64,000 nt of DNA from Porphyrobacter sp. HT-58-2 (lineage in GTDB: Bacteria > Pseudomonadota > Alphaproteobacteria > Sphingomonadales > Sphingomonadaceae). Made by a program: the position numbers and the translations under genes. The notes below the pieces were generated by a model. It was not told the DNA's origin and did no database searches. It worked only from the letters and a program-made list of their open reading frames with translations. Below, in pieces: positions 34,395 through 53,462 of the stretch; position 1 is the stretch's first letter, and every line of letters starts with the position of its first letter. Where the stretch lies: assembly GCF_002952215.1 (NCBI RefSeq), contig NZ_CP022600.1:2480001-2544000 (forward strand). Direction: 5' to 3'.

Positions 34395-35116
34395 ATGGGA
34401 CACATTCTGGTCACGGGATCAAGCCGCGGAATTGGCAGGGCGGCACTTGTCGCACTCGCCGAGCGGGGGCGAAAATCATCGGCCACGCCTCGCGTGCGCC
34501 AGCATCGGCGGGCGCGGTGCCGATCATTGCCGCCGATTTCGGCGATCCGCTGAGTGTCCAATCGCTGTGGGAACAGGCGCTTGAGATCGCAGGCGGCGAA
34601 ATCGACGTCGTGGTCAACAATGCCGGGCGCTTCGAAGCCAACCGGCTCGACCGTTCCGATATCGAATGGCTCGATGCGTGGGAGGATACCTTGCGGGTCA
34701 ATCTCACCAGCGCCGCGCAGCTTTCGCGCTTTGCGGTGCTGCACTGGCAGGAGCGTGGATTCGCCGGACGGCTGGTCCATGTCGCCAGTCGCGCCGCCTA
34801 TCGCGGAGATTCGCCCCAGCACTGGCATTATGCCGCTGCCAAGAGCGGGATGGTGGGGATGCACAAGACCATTGCCCGTGCCTATGCCAAGGACGGGATC
34901 CTGAGCTTTGCCGTCACCCCCGGCTTTACCGACACCAGCATGGCGGGCGATTACCTCGCCAGCCGCGGCGGGCCGGGGCTGCTCGCCGACATTCCGCTGG
35001 GCCGCGTCGCCACGCCCGAGGAGATCGCCGCGATCATCACCTTCTGCGCCCTCGACGCGCCCCCGAGCATGACCGGCGCAGTGATTGACGCGAATGGAGC
35101 AAGCTTTGTCCGCTAG
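34395..35116 (+). pseudogene. SDR-family oxidoreductase with a single-base frameshift
   Basis: ATG 34395 starts a good SDR N-terminus (MGHILVTGSSRGIGRAALVA) in one frame, and the rest of the enzyme continues in another frame from AKIIGHASRAP onward, including VVVNNAGRFEAN, SRAAYRGDSPQHWHYAAAKSG and SMTGAVIDANG. The frames meet at a run of five G (34465-34469). Adding one G would restore one continuous protein of about 240 residues. So either the base is missing in the assembly, the tract is variable, or the gene is inactive. The sequence to the 3' end is otherwise intact and overlaps the start of the next gene. Confidence 0.85.
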
Positions 35117-36056
35117 GCTATTTGCAGCGCTCGTGCTCGCCCTGCCCCTGCTCGGTGCGCGGGAGCCGACGACCGGCCCCCTGACGACCCATCCCTGGGT
35201 TACCGCCTGCAAGGACCGGGATGATCGGGACAAGCCGGGCCCCGCCTTTCAGGTCTATCGGAACACCTATTACGTGGGGACTTGCGGAGTCTCCGCAATC
35301 CTCGTCACCTCGCCAGAGGGCCATCTCCTGATCGACAGCGGAACCGAGGCGGGCGCGGAGGTGGTGCTCGCCAATATCCGCGCGCTCGGTTTCGATCCCA
35401 AGGACATCAAGCTGTTGCTGGGCAGCCATGAGCATTCCGACCATATCGGCGGATTGCTCACCATTCAGGAGATAACCCGCGCCCCGATCGTCACGTCATT
35501 CGAAGGGCTGAACGTCATTGCCTCGGGTCAGGCAACCAAAGACGATCCCCGCTATGGCACGCTCGAACCGATGCGGAGCCTGCCGGAATCAAGCTACACC
35601 ATCGAGCCATCGCCGATCCTGCGCTATAATGAACCGAAGGCACAGTTCCTTCTCGACAAGTTCGGCGTATGGCCCATTCCCACTCCCGGCTACAGTCCGG
35701 CAGCGATGAGCTGGACCTGGCGCGATTGCGAGGGCGATGAATGCCTCACCATCATCTATGCCGCCAATCTCCTGCCCGTCAGCCGGGACGACTACAAATT
35801 CACCGATAACCCGCGCTACGTTCATGAATTCCTTGCATCACTGCAACGGATTGCCGATGCACCCTGCGACATTCTGCTGACCCCGCTCCCCTCGGCCAGC
35901 AAAATGCGCGACACGCTGCGGGCCGGTAGTTTGAACGCATCCTATGCCTATCGCTGCGACAGCTACACACGGTTCCAGCGCTCGTTGCTTATCGACCGCC
36001 TTCTTCAAGAAGATCCCGAATGGATGAAGAAGAACTTCCCGCAAGGTATCAAGTGA
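35094..36056 (+). CDS. subclass B3 metallo-beta-lactamase-fold protein with altered zinc site
   Basis: About 320 residues from ATG 35094, with a hydrophobic signal sequence (LFAALVLALPLLGA). It aligns by eye to B3 enzymes: LLGSHEHSDHIGG supplies H112, H114, D116 and H117. The other two B3 ligands are absent: the usual PTPGHTPG reads PTPGYSPA (Tyr200), and the usual SPHP/TPHP reads TPLP (Leu265). Surroundings such as AMSWTWRDC and APCDILLTPLP keep the family shape. Hydrolysis is therefore doubtful or uses a different metal arrangement. It overlaps the SDR 3' end and the next gene by four bases (GTGA). Confidence 0.88.
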   Translation: MEQALSARLFAALVLALPLLGAREPTTGPLTTHPWVTACKDRDDRDKPGPAFQVYRNTYYVGTCGVSAILVTSPEGHLLIDSGTEAGAEVVLANIRALGFDPKDIKLLLGSHEHSDHIGGLLTIQEITRAPIVTSFEGLNVIASGQATKDDPRYGTLEPMRSLPESSYTIEPSPILRYNEPKAQFLLDKFGVWPIPTPGYSPAAMSWTWRDCEGDECLTIIYAANLLPVSRDDYKFTDNPRYVHEFLASLQRIADAPCDILLTPLPSASKMRDTLRAGSLNASYAYRCDSYTRFQRSLLIDRLLQEDPEWMKKNFPQGIK

Positions 36057-36958
36057 ATACGTGGAAACTGTCCGCCCTCGCCCCCAAGCCCATCGTGCAG
36101 GCGGCGCTGCTGGCGCATGACCTCATCGAGGACTGGGACCCCGACCTCGTCATCGCCGGCCGCGAGGTGGCTGAAGACCGACCCGAGGACTGGGTGCTGG
36201 AAGGCTGGTATCCGAAGAAGCCCGGCAAAGCCGAAAAGCGGGCGCTCGCCGGACTGTTCGAGGGCAAGGCCCCGCTGATCACGGTCGAGGAATTGCCGCC
36301 CGAAGACTGGGTGACATTGAGCCAGCAGAACGCCCAGCCGATCCGCGCCGGGCGCTTCCACGTCCACACGCCGGAATTCCCCGCCGATCCCGATCTGATC
36401 GACTTCGTGATTCCTGCCAGCCAAGCCTTCGGCACCGGCCAGCACCGCACCACCGCCGGGTGTCTCGAAATGCTGGGCGACATGAAGGCGAGCGGCGTGA
36501 TCGCCCGCAATATCGCCGATATCGGCACCGGCACCGGCCTGCTCGGCTTTGCGGCGCTCCGCCTGTGGCCGCGCGCCTTTTGCACCCTCACCGATATCGA
36601 TCCGGTCTGCGTCCCCGTGGTCGAGGAGAACGCCGCCACCAACGGGATTCCCCTCGGCCCGCGCGCGGGCGAGGCGGTGATGATCGTCGCCGACGGGATG
36701 GATGATCCCTTGCTCCGCCTTCGCGGGCCTTATGATCTGCTGATTGCCAATATCCTCGCCGGGCCACTCGTCAGCCTCGCCCCCGATTTCGCCCGTGCGG
36801 TCAGTCCGGGCGGGAGCCTGCTGCTGGCGGGGCTCCTCGCAGGCGAACAGGAAGCGGCGGTCAGGCGCGCCATGCAGCGCGCCGGTTTCCGCATGGCCAA
36901 AAGGCTCCAGCGCGGCGACTGGGCGATCCTGTGGCTGCGGAGAAGGCGCGTGCGCTAG
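36053..36958 (+). CDS. prmA: ribosomal protein L11 methyltransferase-like
   Basis: 301 residues from GTG 36053, which overlaps the preceding stop as GTGA. The PrmA SAM domain is clear: AFGTGQHRTTAGCLEML, IADIGTGTGLLGFAALRLW, LTDIDPVCVPVVEENAATNG, LLIANILAGPLVSLAPDFA. PrmA trimethylates ribosomal protein L11. An additional N-terminal region of about 120 residues is normal for the family. It converges with and overlaps the CinA-like gene by four bases. Confidence 0.9.
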   Translation: MNTWKLSALAPKPIVQAALLAHDLIEDWDPDLVIAGREVAEDRPEDWVLEGWYPKKPGKAEKRALAGLFEGKAPLITVEELPPEDWVTLSQQNAQPIRAGRFHVHTPEFPADPDLIDFVIPASQAFGTGQHRTTAGCLEMLGDMKASGVIARNIADIGTGTGLLGFAALRLWPRAFCTLTDIDPVCVPVVEENAATNGIPLGPRAGEAVMIVADGMDDPLLRLRGPYDLLIANILAGPLVSLAPDFARAVSPGGSLLLAGLLAGEQEAAVRRAMQRAGFRMAKRLQRGDWAILWLRRRRVR

Positions 36959-47322: not shown

Positions 47323-48117
47323 TTACGACGCGGTGACGCCCTCGGCGTGCTTGTTCACCAGCTTGAAGGCGCGCTCGTACCAGTCGCTGCCGGGATAGTT
47401 TGCGCCCAGCACCGCGGCATACTTCACCGCCTCCTGCGGCACGCCAAGGGCAAGGCTGCTTTCGGTGAGGCGATACAGCGCCTCGGCGGTGTGGCTGGTG
47501 GTATCGAACTTCTCGACCACATTGCGGAACCGCATATCCGCCGCGAGCCACAGGCCCATGCGCTGGTAGTGGCGGCCGATCTCCATCTCCTTGCCCGCAA
47601 GGTGATCCGCCACCAGATCGAGCTTCAGCCGCGCGTCGGCGGCATATTCGGTCTGGGGAAAGCGCCGGTTGACCTCGCGCAGCGCGGTCTGCGCCTGCTC
47701 GGTGATCTTCTGGTCGCGGTTCACGTCGCTGATCTGCTCGTAATAGCTGAGCGCGATCAGGTAGTAGGCGTAAGGCGCATCCTTGTTCCCCGGGTGGATC
47801 GACAGGAACCGCTGCGCGTTCTGGATCGCCTTGTTGTAATCGCGCGCGATGTAATAGCTGAAGGCGCTCATCAGCTGCGCGCGGCGCGCCCAGGGCGAAT
47901 AGGGGTGCTGGCGCTCCACCTCGTCGAACAGCGCGGCGGCCTGCAACGTGTTCCCCCGATCCAGCCGCTTCTGCGCCTCGGTATAGAGCGATTCGACATC
48001 GCGCGCGACATAGGCGACGTCCTTGCCCTTGGTGCTGCCCGAACAGGCGGCAAGAGCGGCAATGCTGGCGGCGACAAGTGCGGCGCGGGCGAGACGAGTG
48101 GTGAGCTTGGCTTGCAT
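47323..48117 (-). CDS. bamD: outer-membrane assembly lipoprotein BamD
   Basis: 264 residues from ATG 48117. Lipobox AALAACSGSTKG, then five TPR-like repeats: SLYTEAQKRLDRGNTLQAAA, LMSAFSYYIARDYNKAIQNA, SYYEQISDVNRDQKITEQ, and later RMGLWLAADMRFRNVVEKF. It is the essential accessory of the BAM complex that inserts beta-barrel proteins, such as the receptor at 44 kb, into the outer membrane. It is divergent from the hypothetical gene at 48244. Longer in-frame sequence to 48732 is antisense to that gene and not part of it. Confidence 0.95.
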   Translation of the reverse strand: MQAKLTTRLARAALVAASIAALAACSGSTKGKDVAYVARDVESLYTEAQKRLDRGNTLQAAALFDEVERQHPYSPWARRAQLMSAFSYYIARDYNKAIQNAQRFLSIHPGNKDAPYAYYLIALSYYEQISDVNRDQKITEQAQTALREVNRRFPQTEYAADARLKLDLVADHLAGKEMEIGRHYQRMGLWLAADMRFRNVVEKFDTTSHTAEALYRLTESSLALGVPQEAVKYAAVLGANYPGSDWYERAFKLVNKHAEGVTAS

Positions 48118-48243
48118 GGCGCGCGATATAGCGAGAGGGGCGGTGAATGGGAAGTGAAGCCGCACCGCCCTCCCCGCGCGCGCCCACATTTTCCTACTCG
48201 CGCAAAATGTGATCCAGAACGCTTGCGCCAGCAAGGACTCCCC

Positions 48244-49146
48244 ATGACCCGCAAGAAAGACCCCCGCACCGCCCGCCTCCCCGTCCCCTTGGGCGAGCTG
48301 CCCCCCTTCACCCCCGTCCCGCGCCGGTGCAACCGCCACGACGGCTGGACCCCGGAACGCCAGCGCGGCTTCATCGAGGCGCTGGCCGACACCGGCAGCG
48401 TCGAGGCCGCCTGCAAGGCCGTCGACATGAGCAGTGTCGGCGCCTACCACCTGCGCCGCCAGCCCGGCGCCGAGGAATTCCGCGCCGCATGGGAAGCCGC
48501 CCTCCAGCTCGGCGTCCAGCGGGTCGAGGACGTGGTGATGGACCGCGCCCTCAACGGCGTGGAGGAACCGCTCTACTCCTACGGCAAGCTGATCGGCACC
48601 CGCACCCGCTACAATGACCGGCTGCTGATGTTCATCCTCAGAAACCGCGCCCCCGAACGCTTTGCCGCGGGCGGCGGGCCGAGGGGCCTCAACGCGGTGA
48701 GCCAGATGCAGCTCGACCGCCTCAAGAAGCAATGGCGCAAGGAATGGGAGGCCGAACAGCCCAACGTCACCGCCGAAGAGGTGCGCGCCAGCATCGACCG
48801 CAAGATCGAGGACATCCGCCGCCGCATCCAGCGCGAACGCCCCGAACGCCGCGCCGTGCTCAGCGAAGAAACCCTCGCCGCCTTCGCCCGCTTCGCCCAG
48901 CTACGCGACCGCGACCTCGCCGCCGCCGGAGCGGACGACCGCACGCGCAAGATGGTCGGCGGCGGCCACAGCACCCCGACAGACTTTTACGACCCGCCCG
49001 CGCCCCCTGCGCTGCCCGCGCCCGAGCGGGACGACGAGCAGGAGCCACCCCGGCACCCGCCCGAGGGGTATTCCTACGGCAAGCCCAAGCCCGCGCCGCC
49101 GCCTAAGACGGTGTGGACGCTCAAAGACGACAACTTCGACCCGTAG
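48244..49146 (+). CDS. HTH-like conserved hypothetical protein
   Basis: 300 residues from ATG 48244. A basic N-terminus (MTRKKDPRTARLPVP) is followed by WTPERQRGFIEALADTGSVE and AACKAVDMSSVGAYHLRRQP, a helix-turn-helix like those of phage terminase small subunits or transposon-type HTH proteins. The middle has GVEEPLYSYGKLIGTRTRYN and a long charged helix (DRLKKQWRKEWEAEQPNVT). The C-terminal 60 residues are Pro-rich. It is not flanked by terminase large-subunit or capsid genes, so phage origin is unproven; function unknown. Confidence 0.75.
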   Translation: MTRKKDPRTARLPVPLGELPPFTPVPRRCNRHDGWTPERQRGFIEALADTGSVEAACKAVDMSSVGAYHLRRQPGAEEFRAAWEAALQLGVQRVEDVVMDRALNGVEEPLYSYGKLIGTRTRYNDRLLMFILRNRAPERFAAGGGPRGLNAVSQMQLDRLKKQWRKEWEAEQPNVTAEEVRASIDRKIEDIRRRIQRERPERRAVLSEETLAAFARFAQLRDRDLAAAGADDRTRKMVGGGHSTPTDFYDPPAPPALPAPERDDEQEPPRHPPEGYSYGKPKPAPPPKTVWTLKDDNFDP

Positions 49147-49164
49147 CGGCGAGGCCGCGCTGAT

Positions 49165-49183
49165 CCTCCCCTGCAAGGGGAGG
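49165..49183. repeat. GC-rich palindrome CCTCCCCT-gca-AGGGGAGG
   Basis: An 8-bp perfect stem (49165-49172 with 49176-49183) lies just after the hypothetical gene. With the flanking GGGGGACCACCAAAGGCGC and the later GGAGGGACTGGTGCGG it matches the sphingomonad intergenic element style. It may act as a transcript 3' hairpin, but it is more likely an interspersed repeat. Confidence 0.6.
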
Positions 49184-49274
49184 GGGACCACCAAAGGCGC
49201 TGGAGGGACTGGTGCGGTTGCTCCGTGTACGGCCTAACTTGATGGCAATCCGCCCGGCGCGTAGCTTGCGAGGT

Positions 49275-49412
49275 ATGACAACGCCGAATCCGGATAACAC
49301 ACTCGATCCTGACGCTGCCGCGTGGCTGGGAGACAATCGCGAAGCGATCTCTTCGGCCAACGCATGGGTCGAAGCCCAAGGTCTACCTCTGCGCGATCTG
49401 CGGCTGTTCTGA
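49275..49412 (+). CDS. orphan CcdA-family antitoxin-like small protein
   Basis: 45 residues from ATG 49275. The end WLGDNREAISSANAWVEAQG and LPLRDLRLF matches the C-terminal toxin-binding tail of CcdA antitoxins (W-x3-NREAI-x2-N-x2-VE-x2-GL). The usual N-terminal ribbon-helix-helix DNA-binding half is missing, and no ccdB-like toxin follows; the next DNA is palindromic repeat. So it is either a truncated relic or a stand-alone tail. Longer in-frame start at 49212 adds repeat-derived sequence only. Confidence 0.55.
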   Translation: MTTPNPDNTLDPDAAAWLGDNREAISSANAWVEAQGLPLRDLRLF

Positions 49413-49423
49413 CCGCCTCCATC

Positions 49424-49516
49424 CCCCTCCCGCTTGCGGGAGGGGTTAGGGGTGGGAGCGAGCGATGCGAGCCTTATCACTGGCCCATCCCCAGCCCCTC
49501 CCGCAAGCGGGAGGGG
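49424..49516. repeat. duplicated GC-rich palindrome unit
   Basis: Two perfect 10-bp hairpins, CCCCTCCCGC-TT-GCGGGAGGGG (49424-49445) and CCCCTCCCGC-AA-GCGGGAGGGG (49495-49516), are separated by 49 bases. The two stems are the same palindrome, and the spacer includes TTAGGGGTGGG and CCCATCCCCAGC. This is the common sphingomonad intergenic element. The first hairpin starts 11 bases after the CcdA-like stop. Confidence 0.8.
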
Positions 49517-49770
49517 AGTTATGCGTCCCGATGGCGCAGCTGCTCTCGGCGGTTGAGGTGCGGGAGTTGGAGGATTGTGTGGGGTCACTTGGGGGTCAGG
49601 GCGAGGCGGTGCTGGGGGCGCTGGATTTTCTGGTGACGGGAGTTGAGGCGGCGGAGGCGCCCAACACGGGCGATTGCTCAGCAATTGGCAACCTAGAAGC
49701 CGGTGGACGCCAGCTAGGGAGTTAACCCGCCAACCTCATGGCCGGGGCGTTCCAGTGGCTGGCTTACAAT

Positions 49771-49792
49771 TTCCTTCTCTAGGGAGAAGGAA
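49771..49792. promoter_or_regulatory. perfect 9-bp stem-loop at island edge
   Basis: TTCCTTCTC (49771-49779) pairs with GAGAAGGAA (49784-49792), loop TAGG. It sits where base composition falls, about 40 bases beyond the end of the membrane-protein gene. It could terminate that gene from the minus strand or be a repeat boundary. Confidence 0.5.
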
Positions 49793-49830
49793 CATAACGA
49801 ACATCTGCAAGATGGCGAAACAAGGGAAGA

Positions 49831-50571
49831 TCAAGGCATTGCTTGTGCACTTATTCCATCAGTAAGCATGTTTAAAATACGGACAAGCTCTTTTGCCATT
49901 TCCTTGTTCGCTTTAAATATAGTCACGTATTCTATCCCATCAGACCGATGACGATAAAGCAAAACCTCCTCACCTCTCCTGTAAACAAGAGAAAATTTCG
50001 GCTTCCCTGGTAGATTGAATTGCATTTTCTTTGCGTCAATCAATTGACTTATTAAGCAGGGATTTTGGCCTCTTGTACGCGCCGAACTGGCAAGAACAGC
50101 TTCTCTCGACTTATAGGATAGTAGCGTTAATTCATCCCTCTGCGCTAAATCAAACATCACCTTTGTGAGAGGCGGATGTTGGTAGATATAACTAAAATCT
50201 CCTGAATAAATTACAACTTTATCCGCTGACTTCATGTATTTTGCCATCTCACGCATGTCTTGATCCATCGTGACCACAACATTAATGAGATGCCCGTCGT
50301 CAGCAGCCATTTGCCAAAGTGGCCGAACAACGATCAAAAGTACCCCGGATATTGTACCTAGGGTCGCCATAAATTTTGACCATTCTGAAGTAAAAAATCC
50401 ACCTGCGGTTGGATCAAATATCGTTAAATATGAACTGAATAAAAACAATATGATGCCAAATACGAGTACAACTAGAGAGGCGCCACGCACCATGACATTA
50501 GCCCGCGCCCTAAAAATGTGAAATTTGTTAACAACCCACGTCCAAATAGATTGCCCTATTGCCGTCAACAT
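49831..50571 (-). CDS. AT-rich island: two-TM membrane protein with soluble PLD-like C-terminal domain
   Basis: 246 residues. Two TM helices (VRGASLVVLVFGIILFLFSS and FMATLGTISGVLLIVVRPLW) are followed by a soluble domain at about 95-245: EMAKYMKSADKVVIYSGDFS, TKVMFDLAQRDELTLLSYKS, YRRGEEVLLYRHRSDGIEYV and a final helix. The strand-and-helix order resembles a phospholipase-D-like sensing domain, but no HxK motif is present, so the resemblance may be only structural. Codon use is clearly AT-rich compared with neighbours. It lies 29 bases after the methyltransferase-like gene, with a GGTAGG ribosome-like site, so the two form one operon. Confidence 0.75.
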   Translation of the reverse strand: MLTAIGQSIWTWVVNKFHIFRARANVMVRGASLVVLVFGIILFLFSSYLTIFDPTAGGFFTSEWSKFMATLGTISGVLLIVVRPLWQMAADDGHLINVVVTMDQDMREMAKYMKSADKVVIYSGDFSYIYQHPPLTKVMFDLAQRDELTLLSYKSREAVLASSARTRGQNPCLISQLIDAKKMQFNLPGKPKFSLVYRRGEEVLLYRHRSDGIEYVTIFKANKEMAKELVRILNMLTDGISAQAMP

Positions 50572-50600
50572 AAGCGCGACCTACCCTGTCAAAAAAGAGC

Positions 50601-51497
50601 TTATTTTGGTCCCGAAGAATGAAAATAAGCGAACCTGCCACCACCCCCTTCAATCAGATGGGATATTTCCTCTCCGGCATAGAATTCGATAACTCCAGAC
50701 ACAACGCGCAAGTCCATTTCCTTGGCAATAGGCTCCAACAACGAGATCAAAAAAGGGGTATCAATCAACGTGAACGTCTTTGATTTTCTAATAAGCTGAA
50801 GAACATCAAATTTCTCACAGACCGATTCCCCGAGCGCATATGAACAAATTACATCAAGGCCAGTTGTGTCTAACGATGAGAAATCGCCAACTTGATATTC
50901 AATATGCGATGGAAAATTCAATCTTTCGAATATTATCTTTGCGTTCTCGATCTGCCGATATGACCTATCGATCATCGTCATCGACTCGAGACGACAGATC
51001 ATTGACAAAGCAATGCCAAACACCCCGGTACCTGCTCCTAAATCAGTGACCTGACTTATTCCAGCAAGGTGATGTTTCAGCAAATGCGATGCAATCAAAC
51101 ACTTGTATAGATTTTTGTAGAAATACGATCTTGTAAAAGCCTCAGAGTAATTCTCGTAAAAAAAATTCTCGGGAGCTCTTGGTATTTCTATCGGATTGAT
51201 CACCTTGGGTTGCCAAAGGCCGCTCAAAATGCGCTCGACCGACAATAGATCAAATTCGGCTGTTTGAGCAATTTGAGGGGGGAGAGCCATTCTTATGGAT
51301 TTGTTTGACGAGTTAACTGGTCGCCGAAACGCCTCAGACTCAAGGGACAACTTATCGCCCCGTGGCAGATGATGGGTGTGGGGAGCCATTCGTGTCACTT
51401 CGCGAAGCTGTGCATTGTCGTTTCCCTTTGAGAATCCGGTTCCAATTATGAAGCCGCTATTCAAGAGTTTATCGACTTTCCATAACCATAGGCCCAA
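50601..51497 (-). CDS. AT-rich island: class I SAM-dependent methyltransferase-like protein
   Basis: Up to 298 residues. Motif I is VTDLGAGTGVFGIALS near residue 150, an acidic post-I MIDRSYRQIENAKII, and a motif II-like DVICSYALGES. The N-terminal 100 residues are not recognised. Start is uncertain: TTG 51497, or ATG 51389 or ATG 51290, which would give about 262 or 229 residues. No REase or other partner gene is adjacent. The target is unknown (RNA, DNA, protein or small molecule). AT-rich base composition differs sharply from lepA on one side and from the CcdA-like region on the other. Confidence 0.75.
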   Translation of the reverse strand: MGLWLWKVDKLLNSGFIIGTGFSKGNDNAQLREVTRMAPHTHHLPRGDKLSLESEAFRRPVNSSNKSIRMALPPQIAQTAEFDLLSVERILSGLWQPKVINPIEIPRAPENFFYENYSEAFTRSYFYKNLYKCLIASHLLKHHLAGISQVTDLGAGTGVFGIALSMICRLESMTMIDRSYRQIENAKIIFERLNFPSHIEYQVGDFSSLDTTGLDVICSYALGESVCEKFDVLQLIRKSKTFTLIDTPFLISLLEPIAKEMDLRVVSGVIEFYAGEEISHLIEGGGGRFAYFHSSGPK

Positions 51498-51644
51498 TTG
51501 GATCGTCCCGTTGATCCGGACATTAGTGCTAAGGTCAACGCATAGACAAGCCTAGAGTTCGTCAGGTACATGAAAATGTCGGCCTCCTCGCACATCATGA
51601 GTATGCGCATTCGATCGTCGCAAGGTAGCCGGGTCGAGCAGGCT

Positions 51645-53462
51645 TCACTCCTCCCCCATCCGCAGCGCAGCGATAAACGCTTCCTGCGGGATGGACACAT
51701 TCCCATACTCCCGCATCCGCGCCTTCCCTTTCTTCTGCTTCTCCAGCAGCTTCTTCTTCCGGGTGATGTCGCCGCCATAGCACTTCGCGGTCACGTCCTT
51801 GCGCAGGGCGGCGATCGTCTCGCGGGCGATCACCTTGCCGCCGATGGCGGCCTGGATCGGGATCTTGAACAGGTGGCGGGGGATCAGGTCTTTCAGGCGC
51901 TCGCACATCCCGCGGCCGCGTTCTTCGGCGTTGGCGCGGTGGACGATCAGGGACAGGGCGTCGACCGGCTCGTTGTTGACGAGGATGTTCATCTTCACGA
52001 GGTCGCCCTCGCGCGTGCCGATCTGTTCGTAGTCGAAGCTGGCATAGCCGCGGCTGATCGACTTCAGGCGGTCGTAGAAATCGAACACGACCTCGTTGAG
52101 CGGCAATTCATAAGACACCTGCGCGCGGCCGCCCACATAGGTGAGTTCGGTCTGGATGCCGCGACGGTCCTGGCACAGCTTGAGGATCGCGCCGAGGTAT
52201 TCGTCGGGGGTATAGATCACCGCCTTGATCCACGGCTCCTCGATCGACTCGATCCGGTTGGTGTCCGGCCAGTCGGCGGGGTTGTCGATGTCGATGGTCT
52301 TGGCGTCCTCGGTCTTGGAATGGCCGAGGTGGATGCGGTAGACGACGCTGGGCGCGGTGGTGATGAGGTCGAGGTCGTATTCGCGGCTGAGGCGTTCCTG
52401 GATGATCTCGAGGTGCAACAGCCCGAGGAAGCCGCAGCGGAAGCCGAAGCCCAAGGCTGCGCTGCTCTCCATCTCGAAGGAGAAGCTCGCGTCGTTGAGA
52501 CGCAGCTTGGCGATGCTTTCGCGCAGTTTTTCGAAATCGGCGGCGTCGACCGGGAAGAGGCCGCAGAAGACCACCGGCTGGACTTCCTTGTAGCCCGGCA
52601 GCGCTTGCGCCGCGCCGTTCTTGACCGTGGTGATGGTGTCACCGACGCGGGCCTGTTCGACTTCCTTGATCTGGGCGGTGATGAAGCCGATTTCGCCGGG
52701 GCCGAGTTCAGCGAGGTCGGTGCGCTTGGGGGTGAAGCAGCCCACGCGGTCGACGAGGTGTTGCGTCCCCCCTTGCATGAACTTGATGTTGAGGCCCTTG
52801 GTGAGCTTCCCGTCGATCACGCGCACGAGGATGACGACGCCAAGGTACGGGTCGTACCAGGAATCGACGAGGCTGGCCTTGAGCGGTGCTTCGGTGGTGC
52901 CTTTGGGCGGGGGGATGCGCTCGACCACGGCTTCGAGCACTTCCTCGATCCCGATGCCGGACTTGGCGCTGGCGAGGACGGCGTTGGAAGCGTCGAGCCC
53001 GATGATATCCTCGATCTCGGCCTTGACCTTTTCGGGTTCGGCGGCGGGGAGGTCGATCTTGTTGATGACGGGGACGATTTCGTGATCGTGCTCGATCGAC
53101 TGGTAGACGTTGGCGAGGGTCTGGGCCTCGACGCCCTGCGCCGCGTCGACCACCAGCAGCGCGCCCTCGCAGGCGGCGAGGCTGCGGGAGACTTCATAGG
53201 CGAAGTCGACGTGGCCGGGGGTGTCCATCAGGTTGAGCTGGTAAGTTTCGCCGTTCTTGGCGGTGTAGTTGAGGCGGACGGTCTGGGCCTTGATGGTGAT
53301 GCCGCGCTCTTTCTCAATGTCCATGTTATCAAGGACTTGCTCGGACATCTCACGCGCGGTGAGGCCTCCGGTGAACTGGATCAGCCGGTCAGCGAGGGTC
53401 GACTTGCCATGGTCGATATGGGCAATGATCGAGAAATTGCGGATCTTGGAAAGGTCAGTCAT
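51645..53462 (-). CDS. lepA: elongation factor 4
   Basis: 605 residues, family length. G motifs: [40 protein letters not shown] and [15 protein letters not shown]. The C-terminal LepA-specific region reads [20 protein letters not shown]. It back-translocates or remodels stalled ribosomes under stress. A 147-base gap on its 3' side borders the AT-rich island. Confidence 0.98.

What the first reader, a model, noticed from the sequence alone, without database searches (positions are those of the whole stretch)
35427..35891. B3 metallo-beta-lactamase fold with two of six zinc ligands replaced
The HEHSDH segment (H112, H114, D116, H117) is intact, but the His expected in PTPGHTPG is Tyr200 and the His expected in PHP is Leu265. 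Both ligand losses occur in otherwise well-conserved sequence, so this is not a random pseudogene. It suggests a mononuclear, altered-metal or non-hydrolytic member that may have a different substrate or act as a decoy.
Basis: partly seen in the sequence, partly recalled or inferred. Interest (0 to 1): 0.75.

Follow-up and report, generated by a model that had tools for sequence, protein, structure and literature searches.

The report
Beta-lactamase with dismantled zinc site
A bacterial enzyme gene of the kind that normally destroys penicillin-type antibiotics has, in this one genome, lost two of its six zinc-holding residues and a neighbouring conserved one while the rest of the protein stayed largely intact, so it probably no longer cuts antibiotics and may be either a re-used shell or a gene on its way out.

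Summary
Confirmed, and more extensive than reported. [quoted passage not shown] HEHSDH is intact. In alignments to solved B3 structures Tyr203 and Leu268 (Tyr200/Leu265 from the ATG) sit at zinc ligands His196 and His263; the residue at Ser221 is Asn228. Each metal site keeps two of three protein ligands (HHY/DHL).

The 'conserved branch' was not found: all 162 other relatives examined that show both columns keep both His, 64 of them in the same genus. The gene sits in an SDR-[MBL]-prmA slot from which it is absent in many congeners and half deleted in one. The upstream SDR is frame-broken here.

It does not look like simple neutral decay: the frame is open, all six conserved Cys are kept, 38 of 42 other conserved columns are kept, and the branch omega is 0.20-0.22 (1 rejected; background 0.09-0.10), though synonymous sites are near saturation.

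Best reading: a beta-lactamase-dead B3 ortholog whose fold is still constrained; a dying gene is the main rival. HHY/DHL is not among the four B3 motifs of the published census. No usable structure model; no assay.

The parts
35094..36056 (+). [quoted passage not shown] in-frame TTG at 35085); N-terminal hydrophobic signal-like stretch (seen by eye)
   Evidence: NCBIfam blaECM 3e-68, blaSAM 9.4e-68, blaEFM 3.5e-64; PDB 6mfi 3.1e-68
35427..35444 (+). HEHSDH: intact H116, H118, D120, H121 equivalents (P0001 residues 115, 117, 119, 120)
35691..35693 (+). Tyr203 (Tyr200 from the ATG) at zinc ligand His196
   Evidence: alignments; His in 144 of 144 relatives with this column, and 20 of 20
35763..35768 (+). 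Ala227-Asn228 in place of Asp-Ser; Asn228 is at the B3 Ser221 position (recalled numbering)
   Evidence: Ser in 144 of 144 relatives with this column and 20 of 20; Asp in 143 of 144 but Ser or Ala in the 15 E116-type rows
35886..35888 (+). Leu268 (Leu265 from the ATG) at zinc ligand His263
   Evidence: alignments; His in 142 of 142 relatives with this column and 20 of 20
36053..36958 (+). prmA (ribosomal protein L11 methyltransferase); its GTG start overlaps the MBL stop (GTGA, 36053-36056)
   Evidence: Pfam PrmA 1.6e-40; neighbour of the MBL in the 15 MBL-containing loci listed
34395..35116 (+). upstream SDR gene, reading frame broken once around 34.47 kb in this window; its end overlaps the MBL start

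Best explanation
It is the local ortholog of the Erythrobacter-type subclass B3 metallo-beta-lactamases (ECM/EFM/SAM-like), probably exported and still folded, in which the dinuclear zinc centre has been taken apart in this lineage: Zn1 keeps two His (Tyr in place of the third), Zn2 keeps Asp+His (Leu in place of the third), and Ser221 is Asn. Shown: the replacements and their alignment to ligand positions, the intact frame, the six conserved Cys, the patchy SDR-[MBL]-prmA slot, and an omega about twice the background but below 1. Inferred: that without these ligands it does not hold the two zinc ions and bridging hydroxide, so it does not hydrolyse beta-lactams usefully, and that the shell persists because the fold still serves a non-hydrolytic purpose (for example binding a beta-lactam, lactone or other ligand in the periplasm). 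The purpose itself is a guess.
For: Ligand columns. Outside the active site 4 of 42 conserved columns changed, as many as in the intact long-branch relatives L175 and L207 (4 each), against 4 of 8 active-site columns; of the 142 other sequences in the tree set one (L189) has a single active-site departure. All six Cys are among the conserved columns kept. Codon likelihood: omega of this branch 0.20, 0.21 and 0.22 in three set-ups; omega=1 worse by 9.3, 10.5 and 9.0 log units. Neutral drift simulated on this gene (4,000 runs each) gives at least 4 of 8 active-site hits with at most 4 of 42 others and no stop in 0.1% of runs at 40 substitutions, 0.05% at 76 and none at 155 or 300.
Against: Found in one genome only, so retention over time is not shown. 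Synonymous sites are near saturation on this branch; with omega forced to 1 its length (0.93-0.96) is about that which prmA gives for the same branch (0.96-1.23), which is what a neutral branch would show. Omega is raised on this branch (likelihood-ratio 4.3-5.3) and not on the control branches L084 and L082, as relaxation would give. The 4 changes outside the active site exceed the 1.5 expected from a line fitted to all relatives. The active-site enrichment is post hoc: p = 0.016, but 0.16 when the two reported ligands are left out. The gene is lost or half-deleted in congeners, and the SDR before it is frame-broken. No usable structure, no expression data, no assay.
Confidence: 0.5

Rival explanations
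1. A gene in the course of loss: beta-lactamase function was lost recently and substitutions accumulate without constraint; the open frame is either chance or held because the gene overlaps prmA by four bases, so that stops or frameshifts would disturb prmA translation.
For: The slot is loss-prone: 68 of 114 genomes of the genus carry the gene, some of the rest being incomplete assemblies; of the 30 best prmA loci 15 have it, 14 have SDR and prmA 4-19 bases apart, one is cut. G019 keeps only the N-terminal half in the same slot. Most divergent of 74 loci given prmA. Raised omega, and a neutral-length branch on the prmA clock. Upstream SDR is frame-broken. GTGA overlap.
Against: Omega 1 rejected over the branch; 38 of 42 other conserved columns and all six Cys kept; joint neutral pattern in at most 0.1% of simulated runs. 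These do not exclude a very recent loss plus chance.
Confidence: 0.3
2. An active hydrolase with an altered metal centre (Tyr as ligand, or a single Zn, Fe or Mn held by the HxHxDH residues), perhaps with a non-beta-lactam substrate such as a lactone.
For: B3 enzymes with three changed ligands exist: HRH/DQK proteins bind metal poorly yet are active after N-terminal truncation (PMC7381538, first of two parts of the text). MIM-1/MIM-2 have lactonase activity (passage in PMC5770381). HEHSDH is intact.
Against: Each site has lost one of its three protein ligands, Leu cannot bind metal, and Ser221 is gone. No replacement ligand could be shown: H247, in a column that is mostly Ala in relatives, is the one unusual His beyond the N-terminal tail, and no usable model could test its position.
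Confidence: 0.15
3. Sequencing or assembly error.
For: The SDR just upstream has a one-base length difference in a G-rich stretch, which could be a sequencing error.
Against: The MBL changes are several in-frame missense changes in separate places with the rest of the frame open; among the rows I found no other clear high-identity frame change in a conserved gene of the window against stretches of G076 and G031.
Confidence: 0.03

Closest known systems
Erythrobacter-type B3 metallo-beta-lactamases (ECM, EFM, EAM; also SAM, MIM, AIM)
   Same: Best profile and PDB matches along almost the whole protein; HEHxDH and the Cys set kept.
   Different: Loses H196, H263 and S221; scores 185 bits against the curated cut-off of 240 of the general B3 model, where the three nearest relatives score 237, 238 and 249, so the cut-off alone is not decisive.
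B3 active-site variants B3-Q (QHH/DHH), B3-E (EHH/DHH), B3-RQK (HRH/DQK)
   Same: Natural B3 proteins with altered zinc ligands; B3-RQK also lost H263 (as Lys) and has low metal affinity (PMC7381538 part 1 of text, PMC10318434 passages).
   Different: Different positions: here H116, H118, H121 are kept and H196 and H263 lost (HHY/DHL). The census of 1,449 B3 proteins in PMC7381538 splits entirely into the four named motifs (1,150+162+90+47). This one was found in a single genome.
Catalytically inactive MBL-fold proteins (CPSF100, INTS9)
   Same: MBL fold without catalysis; CPSF100 lacks key residues of the HxHxDH motif (passages of PMC4819959).
   Different: Eukaryotic, RNA processing, paired with an active paralog; here no second match in the genome at E 0.001, no known partner, and HxHxDH is the part that is kept.

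Membership tests
Subclass B3 metallo-beta-lactamase (sequence family) | Homology over the full domain to B3 enzymes | tested here: met
   38-55% identity to the full-length orthologs of the genus
Subclass B3 metallo-beta-lactamase (sequence family) | Curated score cut-off of NF033105 (240 bits) | tested here: not met
   185.2 bits; nearest intact relatives 237.2, 238.4, 248.9, so two of these three miss it as well
Active B3 enzyme | Zn1 ligands H116, H118, H196 | tested here: not met
   H, H, Tyr
Active B3 enzyme | Zn2 ligands D120, H121, H263 | tested here: not met
   D, H, Leu
Active B3 enzyme | Ser221 (recalled) | tested here: not met
   Asn228; Ser in all 164 relatives with this column (144, 20)
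Active B3 enzyme | Beta-lactam hydrolysis with bound zinc | not testable with these tools
   needs purified protein
B3-Q, B3-E or B3-RQK variant | Q116 / E116 / R118+Q121+K263 | tested here: not met
   none present; 15 relatives with E116 were seen and differ
Known mononuclear MBL pattern (recalled: B2 single zinc at D120/C221/H263; ETHE1-type iron needing the H196 equivalent) | Complete set of one site | tested here: not met
   H263, residue 221 and H196 are all replaced; the patterns themselves are recalled
Pseudogene | Broken frame or no selective constraint | tested here: inconclusive
   frame open; omega 0.20-0.22, 1 rejected, but synonymous sites near saturation and the loss is not dated
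Pseudoenzyme (selected non-catalytic member) | Catalytic residues lost and protein retained by selection across lineages | tested here: inconclusive
   first part met by sequence; second rests on one genome

The most novel reading that the evidence does not exclude
A natural pseudo-beta-lactamase: a B3 scaffold whose di-zinc centre was dismantled under selection and re-used as a non-hydrolytic exported binding protein (beta-lactam or other small-molecule sink or sensor), with a fifth B3 motif, HHY/DHL.
Probability: 0.2. Interest if true: 0.65.

Novelty: new variant of a known kind. Interest (0 to 1): 0.42.

Why it matters
Annotation by overall similarity would call this a B3 beta-lactamase; it is a near relative of working enzymes that probably cannot work, in a slot where intact, half-deleted and absent states of the gene coexist among species of one genus. 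If the protein is retained for a non-catalytic role, it would be a natural pseudoenzyme in a family known for hydrolases, and its loss of H196 plus H263 is a combination not listed in the published B3 motif census (PMC7381538).

Tried and rejected
Structure: a single-sequence AlphaFold2 run gave mean pLDDT 37.2, pTM 0.24, so no fold search was made on it. Whether H247 or another side chain reaches the metal site therefore stays untested.

The genome-contig scan returned distant relatives only (80 kept of 182); genus, family and order searches replaced it. Plasmid search: 16 records, best 42% (LMB-1).

Lateral replacement of the query allele: the protein tree puts it outside L084, L082 and L083 (support for that split not printed), but the codon likelihood is 9.7 log units better with it beside L082/L083 as in prmA, so vertical descent is preferred. 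Against the ten loci whose prmA is 76-86% identical to the window's, MBL identity is 36-54%.

Taking the active-site enrichment as proof of selection: rejected as decisive because it is post hoc. The codon model and the drift simulation are my own scripts; the simulation ignores insertions and deletions.

Literature: searches. 'metallo-beta-lactamase' + 'pseudogene' + 'Erythrobacter' gave 0 papers, 'metallo-beta-lactamase' + 'pseudoenzyme' + 'zinc' + 'lost' 0, in a library that lacks most subscription journals. Papers seen: PMC7381538, first of two parts of the whole text; PMC10318434, PMC5770381, PMC10740994 and PMC4819959, passages only; all others, search listings only.

Full report
What is there. 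The gene runs from 35094 (ATG; an in-frame TTG lies at 35085) to 36056 on the + strand and encodes 320 residues. It begins with a hydrophobic signal-like stretch (by eye). Its best NCBIfam models are the B3 families ECM (3e-68), SAM (9.4e-68) and EFM (3.5e-64), and its best solved-structure match is chain 6mfi_A (3.1e-68).

The observation. In the four alignments to solved B3 enzymes that one search printed, H115, H117, D119 and H120 match, Tyr203 faces His in PGH (PAH in 6auf), and Leu268 faces His in TPHPSAS, without gaps beside them. The ligand sets H116/H118/H196 and D120/H121/H263 are as given in PMC10318434 and PMC7381538; that these two His are number 196 and 263 is recalled from B3 numbering and fits the order of the motifs. 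In addition the residue at Ser221 (recalled number) is Asn228 and the Asp before it is Ala227. The Asp is not essential to the family, since the 15 E116-type relatives have Ser or Ala there.

How unusual. I searched all 114 genomes held for the genus, then 397 of the family and 396 of the order, with overlap between the sets. In the genus 69 genomes match; one of them (G074) has only a weak match to a short stretch and was set aside, which leaves 68, all of which were fetched. Of these, 64 have all six ligands, 2 are cut by contig ends before His263, 1 (G019) lacks the C-terminal half, and 1 is the window. Over all 145 distinct relatives aligned (one duplicate dropped), 142 have all six columns and all 142 are canonical. 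I then fetched 20 low-scoring family matches: 15 have Glu at position 116 and 5 are canonical at the ligands; all 20 keep H196, S221 and H263. The other family and order matches (tallies 167 of 397 genomes and 160 of 396) were not all fetched. As a positive control, the same procedure does pick up E116 variants.

The locus. The MBL lies between a short-chain dehydrogenase gene (SDR) and prmA, and its stop overlaps the prmA start (GTGA, 36053-36056). Among the 30 best prmA loci of the genus, 15 (the window included) carry an MBL in this slot, 14 have SDR and prmA separated by 4 to 19 bases with no MBL match, and one is cut by a contig end. In G019 an N-terminal MBL half lies between SDR and prmA. 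The gene is thus present in some and missing in other close species, and loss is the simplest reading. Against the ten loci whose prmA is 76-86% identical to the window's, the MBL is only 36-54% identical, and the window's MBL is the most divergent of 74 loci once prmA identity is allowed for. The genome has no second match to this protein at E 0.001.

The SDR. Against six relatives the upstream SDR shows a one-base length difference around 34.47 kb that breaks its frame, and Pfam finds the domain without its first 40 or so positions in the remaining frame. In a comparison of the window with 60 kb each of G076 and G031, this was the only row that I read as a clear high-identity frame change in a conserved gene; other flagged rows look like reads of non-coding frames or low-identity ends. 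Parts of the window had no counterpart there. The break may be real or a sequencing error; intact copies exist in relatives.

Selection. A protein tree of 143 sequences gives the window's gene the second longest terminal branch (0.70; median 0.19). With the species-like topology, which fits better by 9.7 log units, omega is 0.21 (5.3 and 21.0); with 8 taxa and 296 codons it is 0.22 (4.9 and 17.9). Foreground controls L084 and L082 give 0.074 and 0.081 and no significant difference from the rest; prmA gives 0.11 on the same branch. Against my reading: synonymous change is near saturation, and with omega fixed at 1 the fitted branch (0.93-0.96) is about the prmA branch (0.96-1.23), so a neutral branch on the prmA clock is not absurd, only less likely under the model.

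Where the changes fall. Of 50 columns at least 95% conserved in relatives, the window departs at 8: W48R, I69V, Q156R, H203Y, G206A, D227A, S228N, H268L. Four of the eight active-site columns changed against 4 of 42 others; the intact long-branch relatives L175 and L207 also have 4 of the 42 but none of the eight; a line fitted to all relatives would expect 1.5 of the 42 at this branch length. All six Cys are kept. Random drift simulated on this gene rarely gives this combination with an open frame: 0.1% of 4,000 runs at 40 substitutions, 0.05% at 76, none at 155 or 300. The Fisher test is p = 0.016, but 0.16 without the two ligands that drew attention.

Mechanism. In B3 enzymes two zinc ions share a hydroxide that attacks the beta-lactam (PMC10318434, passages). 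Here each site keeps two of three protein ligands and Ser221 is gone. Leu cannot bind metal; Tyr could in principle. Single-metal relatives that I recall need either H196 or residue 221 plus H263, all replaced here. I therefore infer that it is not a useful beta-lactamase (about 0.8). Whether the shell is kept for a non-catalytic task (0.5) or is being lost (0.3) is open. An active altered-metal enzyme (0.15) stays possible because HRH/DQK proteins of B3 work after truncation in spite of poor metal binding (PMC7381538).

Compared with what is known. B3 enzymes of Erythrobacter (EAM, ECM, EFM, ELM, EVM) are named in the tables of PMC10740994 (passages). The census in PMC7381538 lists 1,150 HHH/DHH, 162 QHH/DHH, 90 EHH/DHH and 47 HRH/DQK, which add up to its 1,449; HHY/DHL is not among them. 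MBL-fold proteins without catalysis are known, such as CPSF100 and INTS9 (PMC4819959, passages). So: a new variant of a known kind, in one genome.

Structure. The only model obtained is unusable, so the statement about ligand positions rests on sequence alignment, which is clear here.

Noticed in passing
window 34395-35116 (+): SDR gene upstream of the MBL is frame-broken by a one-base length difference in a G-rich stretch near 34.47 kb; six relatives aligned are in frame. Real decay or sequencing error not resolved.
   Followed up: partly
SDR-prmA slot, loci L228-L257: The slot between two conserved genes holds an MBL allele, nothing, or (G019, L176) half an MBL among species of one genus, and the alleles are far more divergent than the flanks: a possible gain/loss or allele-exchange hotspot for a B3 beta-lactamase.
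   Followed up: partly
window 48001-52000: Local drop in G+C (0.565; the other 4-kb blocks are 0.623-0.697) covering two ORFs without Pfam match (49121-49684, 49831-50571, - strand) and a methyltransferase-like ORF (50601-51497, - strand); a possible island.
   Followed up: no
L175 (G048): Relative with all six ligands but unusual surroundings (NPTHSPGS, YADSNGTSSTGD) on the longest terminal branch of the tree; a possible second functional shift in the family.
   Followed up: no
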